A stretch of 64,000 bases of DNA from the NCBI GenBank assembly GCA_025890175.1, contig JANPYM010000007.1:1616209-1680208 (forward strand), read 5' to 3'. A model generated the notes under the pieces. The model made no database searches, was not told where the DNA came from, and saw nothing but the letters and a program-made list of their open reading frames with translations. How positions within the stretch are numbered: position 1 is the stretch's first letter; each line of letters begins with the position of its first letter. Position numbers and translations under genes: made by a program. Source of the stretch: Ciborinia camelliae. Its lineage: Eukaryota; Ascomycota; Leotiomycetes; Helotiales; Sclerotiniaceae. This document shows positions 3,701-55,211 of this stretch, in pieces.

Positions 3701-4589
3701 CAAGTGCAACCCGGAATATATCATATCATCACCATGCTTGAACCCCGCTACCATGGAAAAGATTTGGCACTTGCAATCTATGCACAATGCACTCCTACCT
3801 AGCTTCCAGATAGAATCAGCACCAGCAGCTCATCCGCTAAAAGCCTCTCACTCTATTAATTCATCCCAACCATTCCCAATCCGTCCCAATCCATCATCGA
3901 CACTTCCTTCCACCCACCTCACTCACCCCCGAACAAAATCTCCAAACACGCAGATATATTATACACCCTATCATATTTATTTCCCATCACTAGTGTCTAT
4001 CCCGCCACAATAGTACCGCGTACATCGTACGTCGTCGACTTACACCTCTTCCATATATTCCTCGGAAACCCTATGGATAATCTCAGGTATGCATGTTACA
4101 AACCCAAGATCCCTTTAATATGTTTATCTAACAACTCGTTATATATATATTGTATATTATATATAGTAGTCCTAAGTCAACCTCAACATCAACCACAACC
4201 ACAAACTTATCTAAACTCTAATGCACCCATTCATCATCTCCCCTCCCCTCTCCCCTCTCCCATTCTTAATCATCAATCCAAATCCTCCCTCATAAATCAT
4301 TAAAGAATCTGGGTTTATATAACAAGCTTCGCTTCCAACTTTCAAGTATTTTTCCTCCCCATTTCCAAATTACAAAATATCAATATCAATACCTATCAAC
4401 AAGAATATCAACAAGAATATCGACATTAACTTCGCATACCCACATCGCATACCTCATACGATATATCCATATCCATATCCCAGCTACATCTACCTATCCT
4501 ATCTCGTCATGAATCACTCACTCACTCGTGTCATGTCATGTCATGTCATGGAATGCTGTGGTGTGGTGTGGTGTATTCTATGGCTATTC

Positions 4590-4632
4590 TTCATCCTCAT
4601 CCTCATCCCCATCCCCATCCCCATCCACATCC
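4590..4632. repeat. CATCCT/CATCCC microsatellite
   Basis: Tandem CATCCT then CATCCC hexamers followed by CATCCA and CATCCG variants. It generates an artificial PHPHPH or IPIPIP frame. Confidence 0.8.
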
Positions 4633-4916
4633 GCATCCTAAATCTAAACCTCAACTTAAACTCCCTGGGAATCTATACCCCAGTCTCTATCTCTATCTCT
4701 TCTCATCACATTTTATTTCATCACATCTCATGGCATCACATCTCATCTAGCATTCATGATATATTCATGATATATTCAAACCCACTAACCAACCAACCAC
4801 CCATCAACCCAACCATAAACCATTCCACTTGCTTCGCTTCTCCTACCCTCCTACCCTCCCTAACCATCTCCCCCTCCCATCTCCCCCAACCCAACCCAAC
4901 CCAACCCAACCTAACC

Positions 4917-5034
4917 TCCCACTTCCACTTCCACTTCCACTTTCACTTCCACTTGCACTTTCACTTCCACTTGCACTTTCACTTCCACTTCCACTTCCAC
5001 TTTCACTTCCACTTCCACTTTCACTTCCACTTGG
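4917..5034. repeat. ACTTCC hexanucleotide minisatellite
   Basis: About 19 copies of a 6-bp unit ACTTCC, interspersed with ACTTTC and ACTTGC variants. The strand is pyrimidine-rich. It accounts for the HFHFHF and LPLPLP frames on the plus strand. Confidence 0.9.
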
Positions 5035-5047
5035 AATTATATGATGT

Positions 5048-5116
5048 ACATATACATATCATCCATATACATATCATCCATATACATATCATCCATATAC
5101 ATATCATCCATATCAT
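5048..5116. repeat. 15-bp tandem repeat, ATATACATATCATCC
   Basis: Four consecutive near-perfect copies of a 15-bp unit, followed by a CTAT tetranucleotide run near 5128-5145. Confidence 0.85.
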
Positions 5117-5713
5117 ACCATCCATACTATCTATCTATCTATCTATATATGGAGAATCGAGATGCCGAGATGATGTAATGATGAATAAATGATACCTACC
5201 TAGATCCCTAGATCCCAAAGTACTACAAGAAAAGAAATCATCTCTCGCCTCAATCCCAAGTCCCAATCCCAATCCCAATCCCAGAACACAAGCGACCATA
5301 TCACAAAAATCACAATCACATCACGCTGCAAATCCAAACAATTAAATTTAAATGTAAATCTTCATTTTTCATTTCTCATTCTTCACTTCTCGTCTTTCTT
5401 TAAAATGAAAGGTGGTGTGATTAATTACAATAGATTAAGTATCCTGAGGGTTTTCATATTTCATCCTTCAAACAGCCGTTGAAAAAATTTAATAAGACCA
5501 ACCCTTTTTTTCCTCGCCTTACTACTTTCATAAATAACGCCCAATTCCCTCCCTAGATTTAAATGGACAGAAGTATGTGAACGCCCAGTCTAATGCAAGA
5601 AAATAATCATAACCTTACTACCGCAACTGTACCCCCAGTATGCGAAGATTGGCGTTCCGATAAGAACAAAATGGTGAGAAAGTAGTTTGAAGATTGGCGA
5701 GAAAAATCAGAAA

Positions 5714-12209: not shown

Positions 12210-12896
12210 CAGTAAAAACAAAAAACCATCTCACCCGTGGACATTCCAACATCCTCCCCCTTCCCGACCATATCACACCTCATCCATACACCACAAACTC
12301 CTCCTTACCTTACCTTACCTTACCTAACCTAGGTATATATAAAACATCACTTAACACCCCCCCCCCCTTCTTCCACAAGCTTCAGATCAGATCGGTGGAT
12401 TGGATTGGATTGGATTATTATACCAAGTAGTTGGGTGGGTGGGTTGGTGGGTTGGTGATCACCTGCAAGCGAATGAATCTCTATTGTTGTGTGGTTTTTT
12501 TGGTGGGGGGAAAGAGGTCTACGGTTATTAGTTAGTTGGTTACTCGATTTTCATCGTGGGTTTATTGGGGGTCCTAGATAGATCACCCTTCTCTTCCAAG
12601 GTCCGGTCGAGATCACCTACCTGCCTACCTACCTCCCTATCTATCTATCTAGATCCAACCAATCTTTTATTTGCCTCCCCGCACCACAGAGTCAGTAGCT
12701 CGGGAATGACATGGTATGATATGGCATGATATGGCATAGCATAGCTAGACTAGATTAGACTAGACTAGCCTCTAATATCCAAGATATGATCTCTCTTGAA
12801 TTTTTTTTATATGTATGTATTATAGATGTATGTATATATAACTAATCCTGATCTGAGGGATTTTCATACCTAGTATCTAGAATCTACTTTATTAAA

Positions 12897-13094
<198 letters not shown>

Positions 13095-14315
13095 TAAACT
13101 CCAGATAAACCCATCCATCCATACATTTTTAAAAGATTCATAAGTTTGCTTGCTTGTTGCTAAATACAATACCATACCCACCAATACGTATCTAAAAAAG
13201 GATGTAAAAAGAATGATATAATGTGATATGATATGATATGATATGACGTGATTATCTAGGGCAGAAGGAGGGGAGGGGGAGGAGAAATTCATGATGAAGA
13301 TCCGCAGCGGAGATTTTCCAAACTCGAATCGAATTTGTGGAATTTTGGTGGATTGGATTGGATTGGTGGATTGGGTTTTGAAAGAGAATAAGAGAGCAAG
13401 AAAGATATCGAGGATGTAGGCGAGTAGTAAGTGAGGTAAAAGCTAATTAATAGGTAGGTAGTAAAAGATGGTATAGTATGGTATTATTTCGTATTGTATT
13501 ATATGGTAAGAAGTAAGATTTCATACGACCCCAAATCTCTTCAATTATATTTATATATATATAAGTCTAAGAGCATATACTCTGTAGGTAATAACGAGAA
13601 GAAAAAAAAGTAATATAAAACCATTAGCGAGAAATAAAAAGGAGGAAAGAAATCCAATTCTCAACATCTACTTAGGTATTGATCATATAAGGCAACCCAC
13701 TTGATATCATAACCTCAACAGTAAAGTTTTAAACTCGAGGTTTACGAGTATGTAGATTTGTAAAAAGAGAAATCGTAATCGATATCTAGGAACTCGATTC
13801 TTATGATAAATCGACCTCATTGGACTGGGCTATGGATGGATTTTGTGTTAGGAAATGGGCTAGTTGTTTGGGGTGTAAGGCTTAGAAATTAGATTATGTG
13901 CGTGGGGTGATGATGGAGGTATGGTATGGTATGGTATGGAATGGAATGGAGTTGAGATTCTGTATTTTAGATTGATGTATCCATATGGTAATGTGGTTGT
14001 GGTATGGTATAATGATATATATGATGGGGAATGAGATGGGGAGTTGCGCGTTGAGTATTTGGTCTTGGACAGAAATTACGTCTTGACTACTTGGTCTTGA
14101 ATGGATTCTAGCTCTTGCAAGAAATATCTCACGAGTAACTATACTTTTAAGAATATATATTGAGTGCATTTGCAGTTTGAGGAATTGAATACTGCCCATC
14201 CATGATGCATTTCTTGAAATTCCACCTCTGGCATAATCCTCAACGAGCATTCATATCTCTTCTACCTTTCGACATCCCTTCACCATCACACACCCCCTCA
14301 TCTTCCTCCCCATAC

Positions 14316-48493: not shown

Positions 48494-50064
48494 TCAAATA
48501 AGCGGAAACCATTGATCAAACCTGTTGCATGGATCGTATTTCTGTTTAAGTTGCTGTAATCGAGCAACATTATTACCATAGACTGTTGGAAGAGACTCAT
48601 CTCCAAAGGCGAAATTAATGTATCTGGATGACAGTGAGCATAAGTGGACCAATAGATGACTTTTGAAAGATAACTTACGTGCTGTTCTCTTTTAAACCAT
48701 CAGTTGATCGCCATAGATCTCTAACCTTGGTTCCAAATGCCTCGGCCGCTTGATCAAGACTAGGATCGGTGTATTGATTGTTGACAAGTGTGGTGAACTT
48801 GACTGTGGAACGGAAAGGGTAGGAAGAAGACGAGTCGGGGAATTTCTTGGCCGTCTCGAACGAATAGCATTCAGCAAATACAGCCGAGTTCCCCACAGCC
48901 GGATTTTTCACGTACTCGGTATACTCGTTCCATATTGCTCTCCACGTTTCTGGGACCATTTGTCCAAGTCCAGCTCCATAGGATGGTTTCCGGCCTCCCT
49001 TACCACAGTGAGGATCATTGGCATAGTTTGACTGGAGGTAAGGGTATACCTTCATGTCGGTGACGACAGGGCCGATATCGAGGATCGAAGCGAATGCCGC
49101 TTGTCCATCACTGTCTGATCCGGTATAGAATGGTGATACAATAACCGCCGGCGTATAGTCAGGGGCACCTGAGGTTCCAAAGTATAGAAAGATGGACATG
49201 GGGGCCGCGAGATATAGGTCGTTGATGGCTGCGACAATCTGTTCGATTTTGTCCTCGCTGAAGATAAGACTGCCTGTCCAGACACTGCGATTGGCCTGCG
49301 GATACGCTTTTATCGTCGCAGATGTAACGATGCCAAAATTTGGACCAGCGCCCCGTAGCGCCCACCAGAGTTCTTCATTGCTTGGATCGACTTTGATGAG
49401 TGTACCTTCGGCAGTTACTAAATCAAGGGTAACGAGGTTATCCACTCCGAGACCGTAACGTCCCATCATGTGGCCTATACCACCACCCAGAATGGCGCCA
49501 AGCACGCCCACACAGTTGCAGTTCCCAAGTGAAACTTGACATCCGTTGTCATCTGCAACTTTTATCACTTCAGATATGATACTACCACCCCCAAACGTAA
49601 TGGTGGAGTCATCATGGTTGAATTTCACTGTGTTCAGCCCTCGGAGATTGATTGTAACATCTTTTTGGCCAATTTGGAAAGTTGTAGCCCATCCGTGTGC
49701 TCCACTCTGTGCGAGAAATCTCACATCATTTTCAATGCAGTATTTAACCTGGAACCAATTGGATTATCTCATGAGCTACTGCTTTTAACAGCTGGGAGTG
49801 AAGAAACAAAATACGTACAGTTTCAAGAACATCATCTTCTGTAGCAACGTTGACAACTGTCCCTGGCATTGGCGCCTCAAAATCACTCCATCTTGGAGCA
49901 GCAGCCGAGGAATGTAAAATAGACGCGTTCTTGGACAGCAGATGCCCTAGTGCCGATTCAATGCTGACGGGTCCCTTGATGGTTTGATCTTGCATGTTTT
50001 GTGCTTTGCTAACATTGAACAAAAGTAATAAAAAGTTGAGGATTGATAGTTTTAAAAGCAACAT
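48494..50064 (-). CDS. secreted FAD-dependent oxidase, berberine-bridge (BBE-like) family
   Basis: Exons 50064-49819, 49748-48679 and 48623-48494 give 481 residues. The start chosen, MLLLKLSILNFLLLLFNVSKAQ, is a clear signal peptide; an upstream in-frame ATG would bury it. The FAD-binding PCMH fold runs from about residue 60 to 235. The candidate covalent-FAD histidine is in SGAHGW (about H100) and the candidate cysteine is in GNCNCVGVLG (C159 or C161), followed by GAILGGGIGHMMGRYGL. The BBE C-terminal segment QQLKQKYDPCNRFDQWFPL is present, so the protein is complete. Fungal members oxidise alcohols, amines or carbon frameworks in secondary metabolism. It is divergent from the UstYa-like gene at 50722, sharing about 650 bp of promoter, which suggests co-regulation. 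Confidence 0.92.
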
Positions 50065-50721
50065 GATCGAAAGTGTGATGACGTTCAATGAGCACCGGTT
50101 ATAAAGAGACGTCCATTTATTAATCGCGGAATAAGCCATCTAATTATACGCTAGTCTCATACGTACTTATGTGACTTGATAAAGCCACCCCTCCAACTGT
50201 TACTGGTGCCTTCTTTTTTCGCCATCAGCTCTTTCTGTGCCGTGAAGTATTGTATTGTATTGGAATTTGGCAGGGAACGGCCCCGGTTTTTCTCATATTG
50301 GGGCATGTGAAGGGGTACGTGTAACGTGACTAGTACATGAAGTACATGACTGCATTAGGGAATCCATGAGCATATAATAAGCCCTAAGCCCTTTGTAGTA
50401 TTTAGCTATACAATCAACAGTTCCAAAGTTATATTACTTTTATATCATTATATATACAGGCCGGGGTTGATCAACCTATGCATATACCACCGAGGTGATA
50501 CTGTACTAGGTATCAACAGATATTAACGCATGTTGTCTAGGGTTGCAGGTGCATTGCATATTGCATATTGCATATCATCTTCCGATAAATTGCGCCACAA
50601 AAGGAACCGCCTGCACCCGTGGACCTTTCAGCATTTAAATTCAGTTTGGTTCAACCCTTCATTCTAGGCATCTACTTGCTGAAAATTCGTCTAGTACATG
50701 TACATAGTACACCTGGGCAGT
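50065..50721. promoter_or_regulatory. divergent promoter between BBE oxidase and UstYa-like gene
   Basis: A 657-bp region between two divergent start codons. It includes GCATATTGCATATTGCATAT (about 50554-50575) and a run of GTACATG words. A common regulator would have to bind here, but no site can be named. Confidence 0.45.
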
Positions 50722-51689
50722 ATGGATAACATTCAGTATACTAGACTCGGCTTTATCGAGTCTGGGACTACCGAGAGCAAAAAAATCCAACACCGGGCCT
50801 CTCCACCCCTGCTTATATGCATTTGTTTACTCTTCTCCAATGTGATTTTTATATGGTTATGGCGAGAAGCTATCTCTCTTGATTGCGTGCGACCGCAATT
50901 AATCGAATGTATGCCCAAAGTTTCATTTTAGTGTGAGAAACTAGACATCTAACTGGGGTTCAAAGCACCTGGCAAAGCTGCAATTCGATATAGGAAGGTT
51001 CGCTTGATGCGAGAACTGGAAGGCAATCCTTACACTGGAGACCCAAGGCCGGATTTCGATAAAGCATGGGCAACTTTAATTGAGCGTAAGTATCCATTCA
51101 TACCATACCATACCATAATGGGATGTGGCTGAAATAGGATCAATAGCTATAGCTATGAAAATTTCAGCCGATGAACTTAGGGCCTTAAACCAAACATCTA
51201 TTCCACTCTACGACGGCTCCGGATTTCTCGCCGAAATGGCTGTCTACCATGAACTACATTGTGTGGTTAGTATTCCTTTTTATAAACCCCGCCATTGAAA
51301 ATGCTTTACTTATCTTCAATGGATGACCAGAAGCGGATCAGGCGTCATTTGCATTTAGATCGCTACTATCCGAATATGACCGCAGATGAACAGAGGCGAG
51401 AATCCATTCACATAGGTATGAAACCAATGGCTCAAGGAGATCCGGAATCCATTGCTGAAAACTTCCAATAGACCATTGCCTTGAATATTGGCGAGAATCC
51501 GCAATGTGCCGGGCTGACGTGGCACTGGCGACGTTCCAATGGGCAGAAAATAAACCATTTTCGAGGGTATGGAGCGATCATGAATGTGTTGATTGGGAAC
51601 AGTTTGATGATTGGGCTCGTACTCGGATGTTGGATGTGACTAACTATTCAATTTTGGCACCCACCGAACAGGGTGCAGATTTGCTGTAA
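50722..51689 (+). CDS. UstYa-family (DUF3328) oxidase-like protein 1
   Basis: Five exons, 50722-50908, 50966-51085, 51168-51265, 51331-51415 and 51472-51689, give 235 residues. UstYa-family proteins carry out oxidative macrocyclisation or other oxidations of fungal RiPPs. A single membrane helix (PPLLICICLLFSNVIFIWLW, about residues 28-47) anchors the protein. Both family signatures are intact: YHELHCV (about residues 129-135) and DHCLEYWRESAMC (about 164-176). The first join, LIE|SPGKAAIRY, needs the donor GTATGC, after which every exon fits the family. The start could also be eight codons upstream. It lies in the same orientation and 390 bp upstream of the precursor-peptide gene, and opposite the BBE gene. 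Confidence 0.9.
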
Positions 51690-52075
51690 GAATGCAAGTG
51701 ATGCCAAGCATGCAGTTCCTTTTCGGCGTAGCTTAGCATGGAAAAATGAGAGCAAGTACATTCTCGTCCGATCACAGGTATTACGGGTGCCGACCATTGC
51801 AGATAATTGGACATGTGATATAGGGACATTGATATAGTATACATGTATGCAACTGATAATTACCGACCTCCCTTTTCTGCATTAGACCAATTTCTTTCTG
51901 AGGATACTTAACCATCCTTCAGTCTTGGATGATACATACTCACTAGGCTCCGATAACTTAACAAGCAGAGCACTTACCGGTATGCTCATCATTCCAATTT
52001 TCAGCATCTCCTGCACTTCTGGCTGAAACAAAGCTGACTGAACTTCAGTCTATACAAAATCCCACCCAACAAACC
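51690..52075. other. spacer between UstYa-like gene 1 and precursor gene
   Basis: 386 bp holding the 3' flank of the first gene and the promoter of the precursor gene. No further gene seen. Confidence 0.45.
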
Positions 52076-52353
52076 ATGCGTATCCAATATCTTTTTGCCA
52101 TCCCCATCCTCGCAAGCTATGCAATCGCAGCAGCAATCCCCAGTACGATCCCTATTCCTCCTTTCATTTTTAAATACTTGGCACTTTGATACTGACTATT
52201 GGATCAGAAGATTTCTCAGCTAGAAGTATCGATGTAGACGAGAAGCTTGCTAACTCGTGGGGTGCTTCTGCTGGAAATTCAGCCTCCGTTGAGAGAGATG
52301 TCGATGAAGTCCTTGCAAATTCTTGGTCAGCTGCTGCCGGAAATGCTGCTTGA
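52076..52353 (+). CDS. putative RiPP precursor peptide with two internal repeats
   Basis: Exons 52076-52142 and 52208-52353 (65-nt intron, donor GTACGA, acceptor GGATCAG) give 70 residues. Residues 1-20 (MRIQYLFAIPILASYAIAAA) form a textbook signal peptide. Two repeats of 22-residue period follow: DVDEKLANSWGASAGNSA (31-48) and DVDEVLANSWSAAAGNAA (53-70), 14 of 18 positions identical. Each is preceded by a single arginine (R28 and R52) rather than the Lys-Arg kexin sites usual in dikaritin precursors. There is no cysteine and, after the signal, no tyrosine; one tryptophan per repeat sits in NSW-x-A-x-AGN. Secreted, repeated, and flanked by two UstYa-family genes, it fits the dikaritin type of fungal RiPP precursor; a small secreted protein of other function is the alternative. 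It is too short to appear in ordinary gene calls. Confidence 0.75.
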
Positions 52354-52474
52354 GTGTAGATTTATTGGAAAGCGGTGCAAGTGTGGTGCCAATCTTGGTT
52401 TGCAGCTCGAGAAATTGAGGTCATGATTGTTAATTGCGAAGATTTATGAATTATATTTAAGACTAGGTTGATAA

Positions 52475-53325
52475 TCATTGGATTTCAGTCCTATTATCAG
52501 TTCTCCATTTCTCTGCCCATTTTACCACGCTGCCATAGTCCCTGCACGTTCGCTCATTCCCCCATCCTGTCAGCAACCCATCTTCGTCCGGATACTCCAT
52601 ATTTGTATCAGAGGCACACATGAGAACTTGTCGTAAATAGTCAAAGCAATGTGCGATGTGTCCTGGTCCATCCAATGCCACCAAATCCTCGAGGAGTGGA
52701 TCGATCTTTCCATTTTCATTTCGAACTTGCGCCAGTAAGGTGTAATAGGCAACTCGCATCTCGTGCTAGATTCTCGGAATATTAGCATGTGTCTTCATTA
52801 CCAGTAGGCAAGAAGATACCGACAACGCAATGGATCTGATGAAATACGGCTATGTTTCCCACGCGTCCACTGGTAATAGGGTGACGGACAAAGCCACGAC
52901 CAACTGCAGGAGCATTTAGTATGGTGTTTACATGAATGAATGAATAACTTTCCTGGAATGATGGATCCCCATGCCTTTTCAGTTTCTTCATTCGGAGGTC
53001 GAGAAAATGAAGTGTTCAAATGCCAAACTTGAACGTTCTCGCCAATGGAAGCTAAAAAGCTATCAGTTCAGCGTTTTCGGTCCATCGACTGTGAAGAAAC
53101 TTTACGTAGGAGGTCTGCCATCTCAATTGACGGATTGGGCGAAGTCCATCTCCTACCAACCAAAAAACCCATGAACCCAGTGAGCAAAGATAGGAAAATA
53201 GTAGCCAGAGCCCACCGAATAATCCAGACCGATTTTTTACAAGAAAAATGACTCCCTTCGGGTTCCTTTGAATCTGAATCCCCCAAGGGATCGTAATCAT
53301 TTCTCTTCGAGAGCATGAAACGCAT
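52475..53325 (-). CDS. UstYa-family (DUF3328) oxidase-like protein 2
   Basis: Exons 53325-53106, 53051-52932, 52903-52824 and 52765-52475 give 236 residues, almost the size of its neighbour UstYa-like protein 1. One membrane helix lies near residues 33-57 (WIIRWALATIFLSLLTGFMGFLVG). The family blocks are NTSFSRPPNEETEKAWGSII, GRGFVRHPITSGRVGNIAVF, HQIHCV (about 135-140) and HIAHCFDYLRQVLMC (about 176-190). Joining the first two blocks needs an intron of only 28 nt (52931-52904; GTAAAC to TGCAG, with ACTAA branch). The alternative, a 79-nt intron from GTTATT to TTACCAG, keeps frame but deletes the conserved RGFVRHP block. Convergent with the precursor gene, 121 bp from its stop. Confidence 0.82.
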
Positions 53326-53916: not shown

Positions 53917-55211
53917 ATGGCTAATGACACTCCCACTCCGGAGTTTCTTGCACAAGATATTGGTGGAGTGCTGACAACAACGGCGGCAGTTTTTATTGTT
54001 TTGCTCATAATCTTTGCTATACTTAGAGGACTGGCTCAACGTACGAAAGGGCGTGATTTTGGCCTCGAAGATCTATTTTCCTACTTTGGTTTGTTCTTCA
54101 TCCTCGGAGAATGTATTATAGCTTTAGGTGAGTCTAAAATGTTCCCGCGGGGCTCAAATTTGGCTACATACTTCCTCAGTCTAATCATGATATGACCTGT
54201 TTTATAGTGCAGGTCCCTGTCGCTGGAGTAGGGCGTCATGTTGCCTATCTTGAAATTTCTGCCCCGAAACAGCTAGCAAATGAGTACATTATCATGTATC
54301 CCATCGAAATCCTCTACATTTCGGCCTTCACATTCCCGAAACTTTCTATTCTTTGCCTTTACCTGAAGATATTCGTCACAAGAATAACAAGAAATACAAC
54401 ATATATCCTCATTGCAATTGTCATCGGTACTTGGATCGCGGAGACAACTACGGCAATCTTCCAATGCTGGCCTATCCAATATATCTGGAACAAGTCCATA
54501 GTTGGTGGCCATTGCGTTAATCAGGATGCAATGTTTCAATTCTGGAGCATTCCCAACATTGTGACAGACACAGCCATGTTAGTCTTACCGATGCCAACCA
54601 TATGGAACTTGCAAACGTCCCTAGTGCAGAAACTAGGTCTCACTTTCACCTTCCTACTAGGTAGTCTGTAAGTTGTTGTGGATTTCTCTCATCTCCATCC
54701 CCATTCATTCTTCATTTCAGCCAAGAGAGCTATAGCTGACAATATGGAACTCAGTGGCTTGGTTGCGTCCTGTGTCCGCTTTGCCATATTCACCAAAACA
54801 GCAGCGTTGAATGATGCCACTTGGGCATCTGTCGAGCTTCAAATATGGACCATTGTGGAGCCAAGCATGTATTTCCTCGCGGGCATTCTTCCAACCCTCA
54901 GGCCAGTGTTGTCCCTCTTCGTAAACAAGTTCAAAACCATCATTGGTTCGACAAAATCATATGGAATCCCCTCAACAAACGAACCCCACAGCTCTCGCAG
55001 TAAAGAAGGTCGACATGTAAATGGCGTCAAACAAAGTAAAAACTGGGCGCCACTTCCTGACGATCTTCTTACTGTTGATGGTGTGGCTCTCGTCGAGTAT
55101 AGCCAGAATGTTCAAGGTGGTACCAGCGAAGGATCGAGTATCGGGGAGAGGAAGGAAGAGCCTGGTATACGAAAAACACAAGAAGTTGTAGTGACGCGGG
55201 TCACTTTATAA
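53917..55211 (+). CDS. PTH11/SAT4-type rhodopsin-domain membrane receptor
   Basis: Exons 53917-54127, 54208-54667 and 54755-55211 give 375 residues. Seven hydrophobic helices lie between about residues 15 and 285. Family segments include FGLEDLFSYFGLFFILGE, FTFPKLSILCLYLKIF (helix after the first loop), IPNIVTDTAMLVLPMPTIWN, and LVASCVRFAIFTKTAALNDATW followed by VEPSMYFLAGILPTLRP. The C-terminal about 90 residues are a cytosolic hydrophilic tail. The second intron's acceptor AACTCAG was chosen because it makes FLLGSLGLVASCVRF, the usual helix. Ascomycetes have dozens of these; some sense surfaces or signals during infection. Its ligand is unknown, and adjacency to the RiPP genes may be accidental. 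Confidence 0.85.

What the first reader, a model, noticed from the sequence alone, without database searches (positions are those of the whole stretch)
48494..53325. Putative fungal RiPP (dikaritin-type) gene cluster
Seen: a signal-peptide BBE oxidase, a UstYa-family protein, a 70-residue repeated secreted peptide, and a second UstYa-family protein lie within 4.9 kb, with spacers of 657, 386 and 121 bp. Established: UstYa/DUF3328 proteins oxidise and cyclise ribosomal peptides in ustiloxin, phomopsin, cyclochlorotine and asperipin pathways, usually as pairs beside a repeated precursor. Inference: this locus makes an undescribed peptide. A BBE-type flavoenzyme as a third oxidant would be a distinctive feature. 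The MFS exporter at 42.7-44.5 kb and the receptor at 53.9 kb may belong.
Basis: partly seen in the sequence, partly recalled or inferred. Interest (0 to 1): 0.88.

Follow-up and report, generated by a model that had tools for sequence, protein, structure and literature searches.

The report
Fungal modified-peptide cluster with flavin oxidase
A camellia-blight fungus carries a small gene cluster that probably makes a short chemically modified peptide, and it pairs the usual peptide-modifying enzymes with an unexpected flavin oxidase, although one of its genes may be damaged.

Summary
At 48494-53325 lie a BBE-type flavo-oxidase, a UstYa-family protein (U1, PF11807 1.8e-48), a 70-aa secreted two-repeat peptide and a second UstYa-family gene (U2), with the stated spacers. 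The organism is Ciborinia camelliae by the peptide's only database match. The two repeats differ mainly by silent changes (pS 0.78, pN 0.16), so the peptide itself appears to be under selection. BBE and U1 have relatives with consecutive locus tags and one contig length in Hypoxylon sp. FL1857; searched back, that BBE hits the window BBE best and that U1 relative matches the window U1 exons at 50-56%. I read this as a real UstYa-type RiPP locus with a BBE partner. Against a textbook dikaritin: two copies only, no dibasic Kex2 site, no Tyr, no detected precursor homologue. U2 lacks a GT donor where its exon 2/3 intron should start, so it may be impaired. The receptor is tied to this cluster by adjacency alone. 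In passing: 11 of 31 UstYa loci in this genome have a fungal-rhodopsin-domain gene within 5 kb, against 0.83 expected.

The parts
48494..50064 (-). BBE-type FAD oxidase, 481 aa in my model with an N-terminal signal-like segment (NCBI model 458 aa, without it); exons 50064-49819, 49748-48679, 48623-48494; His100 and Cys159 at the two usual flavin-attachment positions
   Evidence: Spliced model; Pfam FAD_binding_4 8.8e-23 and BBE 1e-8; NHQ30_006152; residues counted over the 120 listed relatives
50722..51689 (+). U1, UstYa/DUF3328 protein, 235 aa, 5 exons, motifs HELHC and HIDHC
   Evidence: PF11807 1.8e-48; 53 relatives, best 57%; motif residues kept in 49-52 of 53
52076..52142 (+). Precursor exon 1: signal-peptide-like segment
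   Evidence: the model equals NHQ30_006153 over all 70 aa; signal judged by eye, no SignalP
52208..52353 (+). Precursor exon 2: two imperfect repeats, DVDEKLANSWGASAGN and DVDEVLANSWSAAAGN, period 22 aa
   Evidence: 0 of 20000 shuffles reach the score; pS 0.775, pN 0.164, Fisher 7.7e-5
52475..53325 (-). U2, second UstYa/DUF3328 gene; motifs HQIHC and HIAHC on separate exons; no GT at the usual place of the exon 2/3 donor (about 52907-52953)
   Evidence: (last exon PF11807 1.4e-13; exon with the first motif 0.016)
53917..55211 (+). Fungal-rhodopsin-domain protein (PF20684); neighbour, membership in the cluster not established
   Evidence: 2e-56; no specific kinship to the rhodopsin genes of the other UstYa loci or of the Hypoxylon cluster

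Best explanation
A small UstYa-type RiPP locus of Ciborinia camelliae. Shown by sequence: a 70-aa precursor with a signal-like start and two constrained copies of DVDE-x-LANSW-x-A-x-AGN, flanked by two UstYa-family genes and, beyond U1, a BBE-type flavo-oxidase. Inferred: the precursor enters the ER; the UstYa protein(s) oxidatively cross-link side chains in each copy, Trp of NSW being the only aromatic; the BBE enzyme adds a further oxidation, in the same compartment if its upstream start is the true one; and the copies are released after single Arg residues (SAR, VER) or by another protease, because there is no dibasic Kex2 site. U2 may be poorly spliced in this isolate, so the pathway may run on U1 alone or be failing.
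For: UstYa, BBE and FAD_binding_4 domains. Precursor annotated identically by others. Repeats beyond chance and differing mostly by silent changes. The same scan finds repeat candidates, picked by eye, at 13 of the 20 other UstYa loci fetched, 12 of these with a signal-like start. On back-search the BBE relative hits the window BBE at 363 bits against 124 for the next, and the U1 relative hits the window U1 exons at 50-56% against 26-44% elsewhere.
Against: No expression or product data. No homologue of the precursor found among 5.8 billion proteins (that search needs shared 5-residue words). No dibasic site and only two copies. U2 splice-site problem. BBE has 74-82% relatives in Botryotinia, Botrytis and Lachnellula, yet none of these genera is named among the U1 hits, so the BBE may have a life of its own; missing gene models could also explain this. 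The annotated start of the BBE in C. camelliae, and of three of its closest relatives, lacks a signal-like stretch. In one search the single best match was a stretch of C27 (91.9 bits), ahead of any one window exon (81.5). Six of the nine species in both lists do not share a contig length, though only 120 of 1468 BBE hits were listed. No other UstYa locus in this genome has a FAD4 gene within 10 kb.
Confidence: 0.72

Rival explanations
1. The cluster is decaying: it once made a cross-linked peptide, but U2 is no longer spliced properly and the precursor has lost copies and its Kex2 sites.
For: U2 lacks the GT donor present in two paralogues; two copies and no dibasic site, where 9 of 13 other candidates in the genome have two or more dibasic pairs; no precursor homologue found.
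Against: U1, BBE and precursor have open, canonically spliced models, and the repeats are conserved at the protein level. Three other candidates in the genome also lack dibasic pairs (L023, L032, L042). An assembly error at the junction is not excluded.
Confidence: 0.25
2. The 70-aa protein is an ordinary small secreted protein or unmodified signalling peptide that happens to lie between two UstYa genes.
For: No Kex2 sites; no Tyr in the repeat; no relatives found.
Against: Position between two UstYa genes; UstYa loci of this genome commonly have repeat candidates beside them; KEPs annotated as mating factors or pheromones almost never have DUF3328 neighbours (PMC7329392, abstract).
Confidence: 0.12
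3. The BBE is a neighbour with an unrelated role (for example sugar or alcohol oxidation) and only the UstYa-precursor-UstYa part is the pathway.
For: Close BBE relatives (74-82%) in fungi without a named U1 relative; annotated BBE start lacks a signal; BBE is divergent from U1 with a 657-bp spacer; 1 of 31 UstYa loci has FAD4 within 5 kb, this one.
Against: Consecutive tags of the two relatives in Hypoxylon and shared contig lengths in two more species; the window BBE is by far the best match of the Hypoxylon BBE in this genome.
Confidence: 0.25

Closest known systems
Ustiloxin/phomopsin/asperipin (dikaritin) clusters
   Same: Secreted precursor with repeated stretch beside UstYa/DUF3328 genes; a flavin enzyme as such is not new there, the ustiloxin B cluster having two flavin-containing monooxygenases (PMC6941272 passage)
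   Different: Two copies, no dibasic Kex2 site, no Tyr in the repeat; the flavin enzyme is a BBE-type oxidase. The tyrosinase, peptidase and methyltransferase genes of those clusters were not sought over the whole window
Kex2-processed repeat proteins (KEPs) of PMC7329392
   Same: Signal-like start, repeats, DUF3328 neighbours
   Different: KEPs need at least 3 repeats of at least 8 aa between KR/KK/RK/RR; here 2 repeats and none of these pairs, so that survey's rule would not list it
Epichloecyclin (gig) cluster
   Same: Multi-copy secreted precursor with a UstYa-like gene
   Different: That cluster holds its own kexB and its precursor has kexin sites (PMC7317419 and PMC8982410, passages)
BBE-like flavoprotein oxidases (6-hydroxy-D-nicotine oxidase, EncM and others)
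   Same: FAD_binding_4 plus BBE domains; PDB sequence matches 2.4e-27 and 1.4e-25
   Different: Only distant in sequence; the words RiPP, ribosomal and UstYa do not occur in the BBE review PMC11375781 (term search)

Membership tests
UstYa/DUF3328 (PF11807), U1 | Pfam match over cut-off and two HxxHC motifs | tested here: met
   165.7 bits vs 25; motif residues kept in 49-52 of 53 relatives
UstYa/DUF3328 (PF11807), U2 | Pfam match and two HxxHC motifs in one readable protein | tested here: inconclusive
   Last exon 51.7 bits vs 25, first-motif exon 15.5 bits; both motifs present; exon 2/3 donor not GT; tested in pieces only
Dikaritin-type RiPP | Secreted precursor with repeated core beside UstYa genes | tested here: met
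   secretion by eye only
Dikaritin-type RiPP | Cores released by Kex2 (at dibasic sites) | tested here: not met
   No KR/KK/RK/RR in the repeat stretch; Kex2 step from PMC9233826 passages, dibasic sites from PMC7329392
Dikaritin-type RiPP | Side-chain macrocycle in the product, through Tyr in ustiloxins, phomopsins and asperipin (Phe in victorin) | not testable with these tools
   No Tyr or Phe in the repeat, Trp instead; product unknown; feature from PMC9233826
KEP (PMC7329392) | At least 3 repeats of at least 8 aa between dibasic sites | tested here: not met
   Definition; two repeats, no dibasic pair
BBE-like oxidase | FAD_binding_4 and BBE domains over cut-off | tested here: met
   81 bits vs 26.4 and 35.5 vs 20.6
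BBE-like oxidase, bicovalent | His and Cys at the flavin attachment positions (motif positions recalled) | tested here: met
   His100, Cys159; His in 63 of 120 listed relatives (Asn in 39), Cys in 118 of 120; attachment itself not shown
Rhodopsin-domain protein specific to this cluster | 53.9-kb receptor is the counterpart of the one fused to the Hypoxylon BBE model | tested here: not met
   25% identity; best counterpart in this genome is C10:440992 with 101.6 bits, window receptor 13th with 40.1

The most novel reading that the evidence does not exclude
A UstYa-BBE peptide pathway shared by Leotiomycetes and Sordariomycetes (perhaps also Aspergillus), in which a secreted covalent flavoprotein further oxidises a Trp-containing, UstYa-modified ribosomal peptide that is released without dibasic Kex2 sites, and so is missed by Kex2-based genome mining.
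Probability: 0.3. Interest if true: 0.7.

Novelty: new variant of a known kind. Interest (0 to 1): 0.5.

Why it matters
If right, it adds the BBE oxidase class to the enzymes that tailor fungal UstYa peptides and shows that repeat precursors without Kex2 dibasic sites occur beside UstYa genes (4 of the 14 candidates compared in this genome). Such precursors fall outside the Kex2-repeat rule of PMC7329392. The clustering of rhodopsin-domain genes beside UstYa loci gives a testable lead on how these peptides are sensed, exported or tolerated.

Tried and rejected
Precursor homologues: none found besides itself, none elsewhere in the genome, so synteny by precursor could not be tested. UstYa in the PDB: no sequence match up to E 1. 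AlphaFold model of a U1 relative (P0002 with 30 others, 31 of the 53 hits): mean pLDDT 67.8, and the best Foldseek match has E 1.3; not used. Receptor as cluster member: considered because of the BBE-rhodopsin gene models P0120, P0132, P0138 and P0162, then not supported. MFS as control family: only 9 of 432 candidates scored, not usable. Composition and tRNA scans showed nothing of use. Comparison genomes of other fungi are not held, so shared contig lengths and locus tags stand in for synteny. The third protein search went to the BBE, so U2 relatives in other fungi were not sought. From the repeat scan I dropped by eye the rows of L021, L022, L041 and the + strand of L032, low-complexity rows and opposite-strand readings of the same DNA.

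Literature: no paper on a BBE enzyme in a UstYa cluster turned up in the one search with those words, and none on rhodopsin-domain genes beside UstYa genes; other searches had other words. Of all these I saw listings and the start of abstracts. Term searches inside papers: PMC7329392, PMC12048977, PMC7099791, PMC11375781. PMC8982410 has a BBE-like gene in an Epichloe cluster, but one with an NRPS-like gene, not the UstYa one (passages). PMC7329392: abstract and outline, sections 7 and 13 read in full; of PMC9233826, PMC6941272 and PMC7317419 only passages. PMC6514808, a review, was listed but not opened.

Full report
What is there. The window lies in a 46.2-Mb genome of 27 contigs. The precursor's only match in a 5.8-billion-protein collection is NHQ30_006153 of Ciborinia camelliae, 100% over 70 aa, so the organism is taken to be that fungus (Leotiomycetes, Sclerotiniaceae), the cause of camellia flower blight (abstract start in a listing). 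The four genes have the stated order, strands and spacers. BBE: 481 aa, FAD_binding_4 and BBE domains. U1: 235 aa, PF11807 at 1.8e-48. Precursor: 70 aa, no Pfam family. U2: PF11807 on its last exon at 1.4e-13.

The precursor. It begins with a signal-like hydrophobic stretch (by eye), an intron follows, and exon 2 carries two copies of DVDE-x-LANSW-x-A-x-AGN-x-A at a 22-residue period. In 20000 shuffles of the 48-residue mature part none reached the observed self-similarity (10; maximum 6). Over 18 aligned codons 6 are identical, 8 differ silently and 4 change the residue. By a Nei-Gojobori count pS is 0.775 and pN 0.164, Fisher p 7.7e-5 on rounded-down counts. This is what selection on the peptide would leave. 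The repeat has no KR, KK, RK or RR and no Tyr. It therefore fails the Kex2-repeat definition of PMC7329392 (section 13), and release after single Arg is a guess.

Comparison inside the genome. PF11807 gives 58 matches, which I merged at 10 kb into 31 loci. I fetched 20 of the other 30 loci. From a repeat scan of stop-free stretches of 35-600 aa (score 8 or more) I picked by eye repeat candidates at 13 of these 20; 12 of the 13 have a signal-like start, and for L026 none was seen. Dropped rows are named under Tried and rejected. Dibasic pairs: two or more in 9 of 13, one in L019, none in L023, L032 and L042. L042 also has two copies at a 22-residue period. So the window precursor belongs to a minority type present several times in this fungus. 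In the whole 64-kb window the scan returned only the precursor and two simple repeats.

BBE and U1 belong together. U1 has 53 relatives with a patchy spread, best 57% in Hymenoscyphus fraxineus, then Aspergillus, Trichoderma, Xylariales and others. The BBE has 1468, of which 120 were listed. Hypoxylon sp. FL1857 (Sordariomycetes) has F5Y13DRAFT_182154 (U1 relative) and F5Y13DRAFT_182153 (BBE relative), both with contig length 401589. The length shown is that of the longest contig of a protein cluster, so identity of contigs is inferred. Searched back, the Hypoxylon BBE matches the window BBE at 363 bits, the next at 124. The Hypoxylon U1 relative matches the window U1 exons at 50-56% and other loci at 26-44%, though one paralogue with a longer open stretch gives the highest single match, 91.9 against 81.5 bits. 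Against this, the closest BBE relatives (74-82%, Botryotinia, Botrytis, Lachnellula) have no named counterpart in the U1 list; U1 itself seems missing from the C. camelliae annotation, so absence there is weak evidence. The annotated BBE starts 23 residues inside my model, without the signal-like stretch, and three of its closest relatives also start without one; the BBE relatives of the Daldinia and Aspergillus pairs do begin with one. BBE His100 is His in 63 and Asn in 39 of 120 relatives; Cys159 is kept in 118 of 120. Of the pair-linked relatives P0088 has the His, P0120 and P0097 have Asn and Ser, so double flavin attachment is not a fixed feature.

U2. Its motifs HQIHC and HIAHC are intact, on different exons. 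At the exon 2/3 junction two paralogues (L015, L041) have a GT one base after the homologous point and a third (L018) reads on without an intron; the window has no GT there. By my reading of the frames, the only in-phase GT nearby would leave an intron of 28 bases. U2 is therefore suspect: an unusual splice, an assembly error or a damaged gene.

The receptor and the passing observation. PF20684 gives 148 matches, merged to 106 genes. Of 31 UstYa loci, 11 (this one included) have such a gene within 5 kb, against a mean of 0.83 in 20000 rotations, reached once. Controls at 5 kb: p450 beside UstYa 5 of 31 (0.68 expected; 15 rotations reach it), FAD4 beside UstYa 1 of 31 (0.33; 5653), PF20684 beside p450 11 of 86 (2.12; 7), PF20684 beside FAD4 6 of 41 (0.98; 20). 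So PF20684 is enriched beside metabolic genes in general and most strongly beside UstYa. Limits: match lists are lower bounds (150 of 189 PF20684 and 92 of 234 p450 candidates scored), contig lengths beyond ten known ones were approximated, and this locus, which drew attention to the pattern, is counted. The window receptor itself has no special kinship to the others: its best paralogues are not among the UstYa-linked ones, and the rhodopsin part of the Hypoxylon gene model matches C10:440992 best, the window receptor thirteenth. Of the UstYa-linked ones compared, only that C10 gene (L027) stands out, 34-35% identical to the four Xylariales ones; the fragments of L034, L041 and L042 reach 23-31%, no clearer than the window receptor at 24-26%. 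The claim that the receptor at 53.9 kb belongs to this cluster thus rests on adjacency alone.

How it most likely works. The precursor is secreted into the ER; one or two UstYa oxidases modify side chains in the NSW-containing repeat; the BBE oxidase acts in the same compartment if its signal-like start is used; a protease frees the pieces. All steps are inferred from sequence and from the known roles of UstYa (PMC9233826 passages; PMC7329392 section 7) and of BBE enzymes (PMC11375781 passages). Without transcripts and a product, I put 0.72 on a UstYa-type RiPP locus as described and less on each detail.

Noticed in passing
genome-wide (G000), e.g. C10:440875, C12:421988, C21:1768825, C2:1862392, window 53917-55211: Fungal-rhodopsin-domain (PF20684) genes lie within 5 kb of 11 of 31 UstYa loci (0.83 expected by rotation); the C10 one is the best match in this genome of the rhodopsin part joined to the BBE gene model of Hypoxylon FL1857.
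   Followed up: partly
L042 4019-4180 (C12:425018-425179): Another two-copy, 22-residue-period, non-dibasic candidate precursor beside a UstYa gene and a rhodopsin-domain gene.
   Followed up: partly
L031, L024, L026, L015, L016, L017, L020, L027, L043: Repeat candidates with two or more dibasic pairs beside UstYa genes: this fungus seems to have about a dozen candidate peptide loci.
   Followed up: partly
L024/L025 (C9:10011-26710): UstYa matches, a KR-repeat candidate precursor and a BBE gene about 12 kb away, a possible second UstYa-BBE neighbourhood.
   Followed up: no
P0120, P0132, P0138, P0162: Gene models of 737-796 aa that join a PF20684 domain to a BBE oxidase in four Xylaria or Hypoxylon species; wrong joins of neighbours or real fusions.
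   Followed up: partly
window 50722-51689: U1 seems to be absent from the NCBI annotation, between NHQ30_006152 and NHQ30_006153.
   Followed up: partly
window 12874-13140 and 4323-5189: Simple-repeat reading frames (GE and HF repeats) seen in the repeat scan; no gene was sought there.
   Followed up: no
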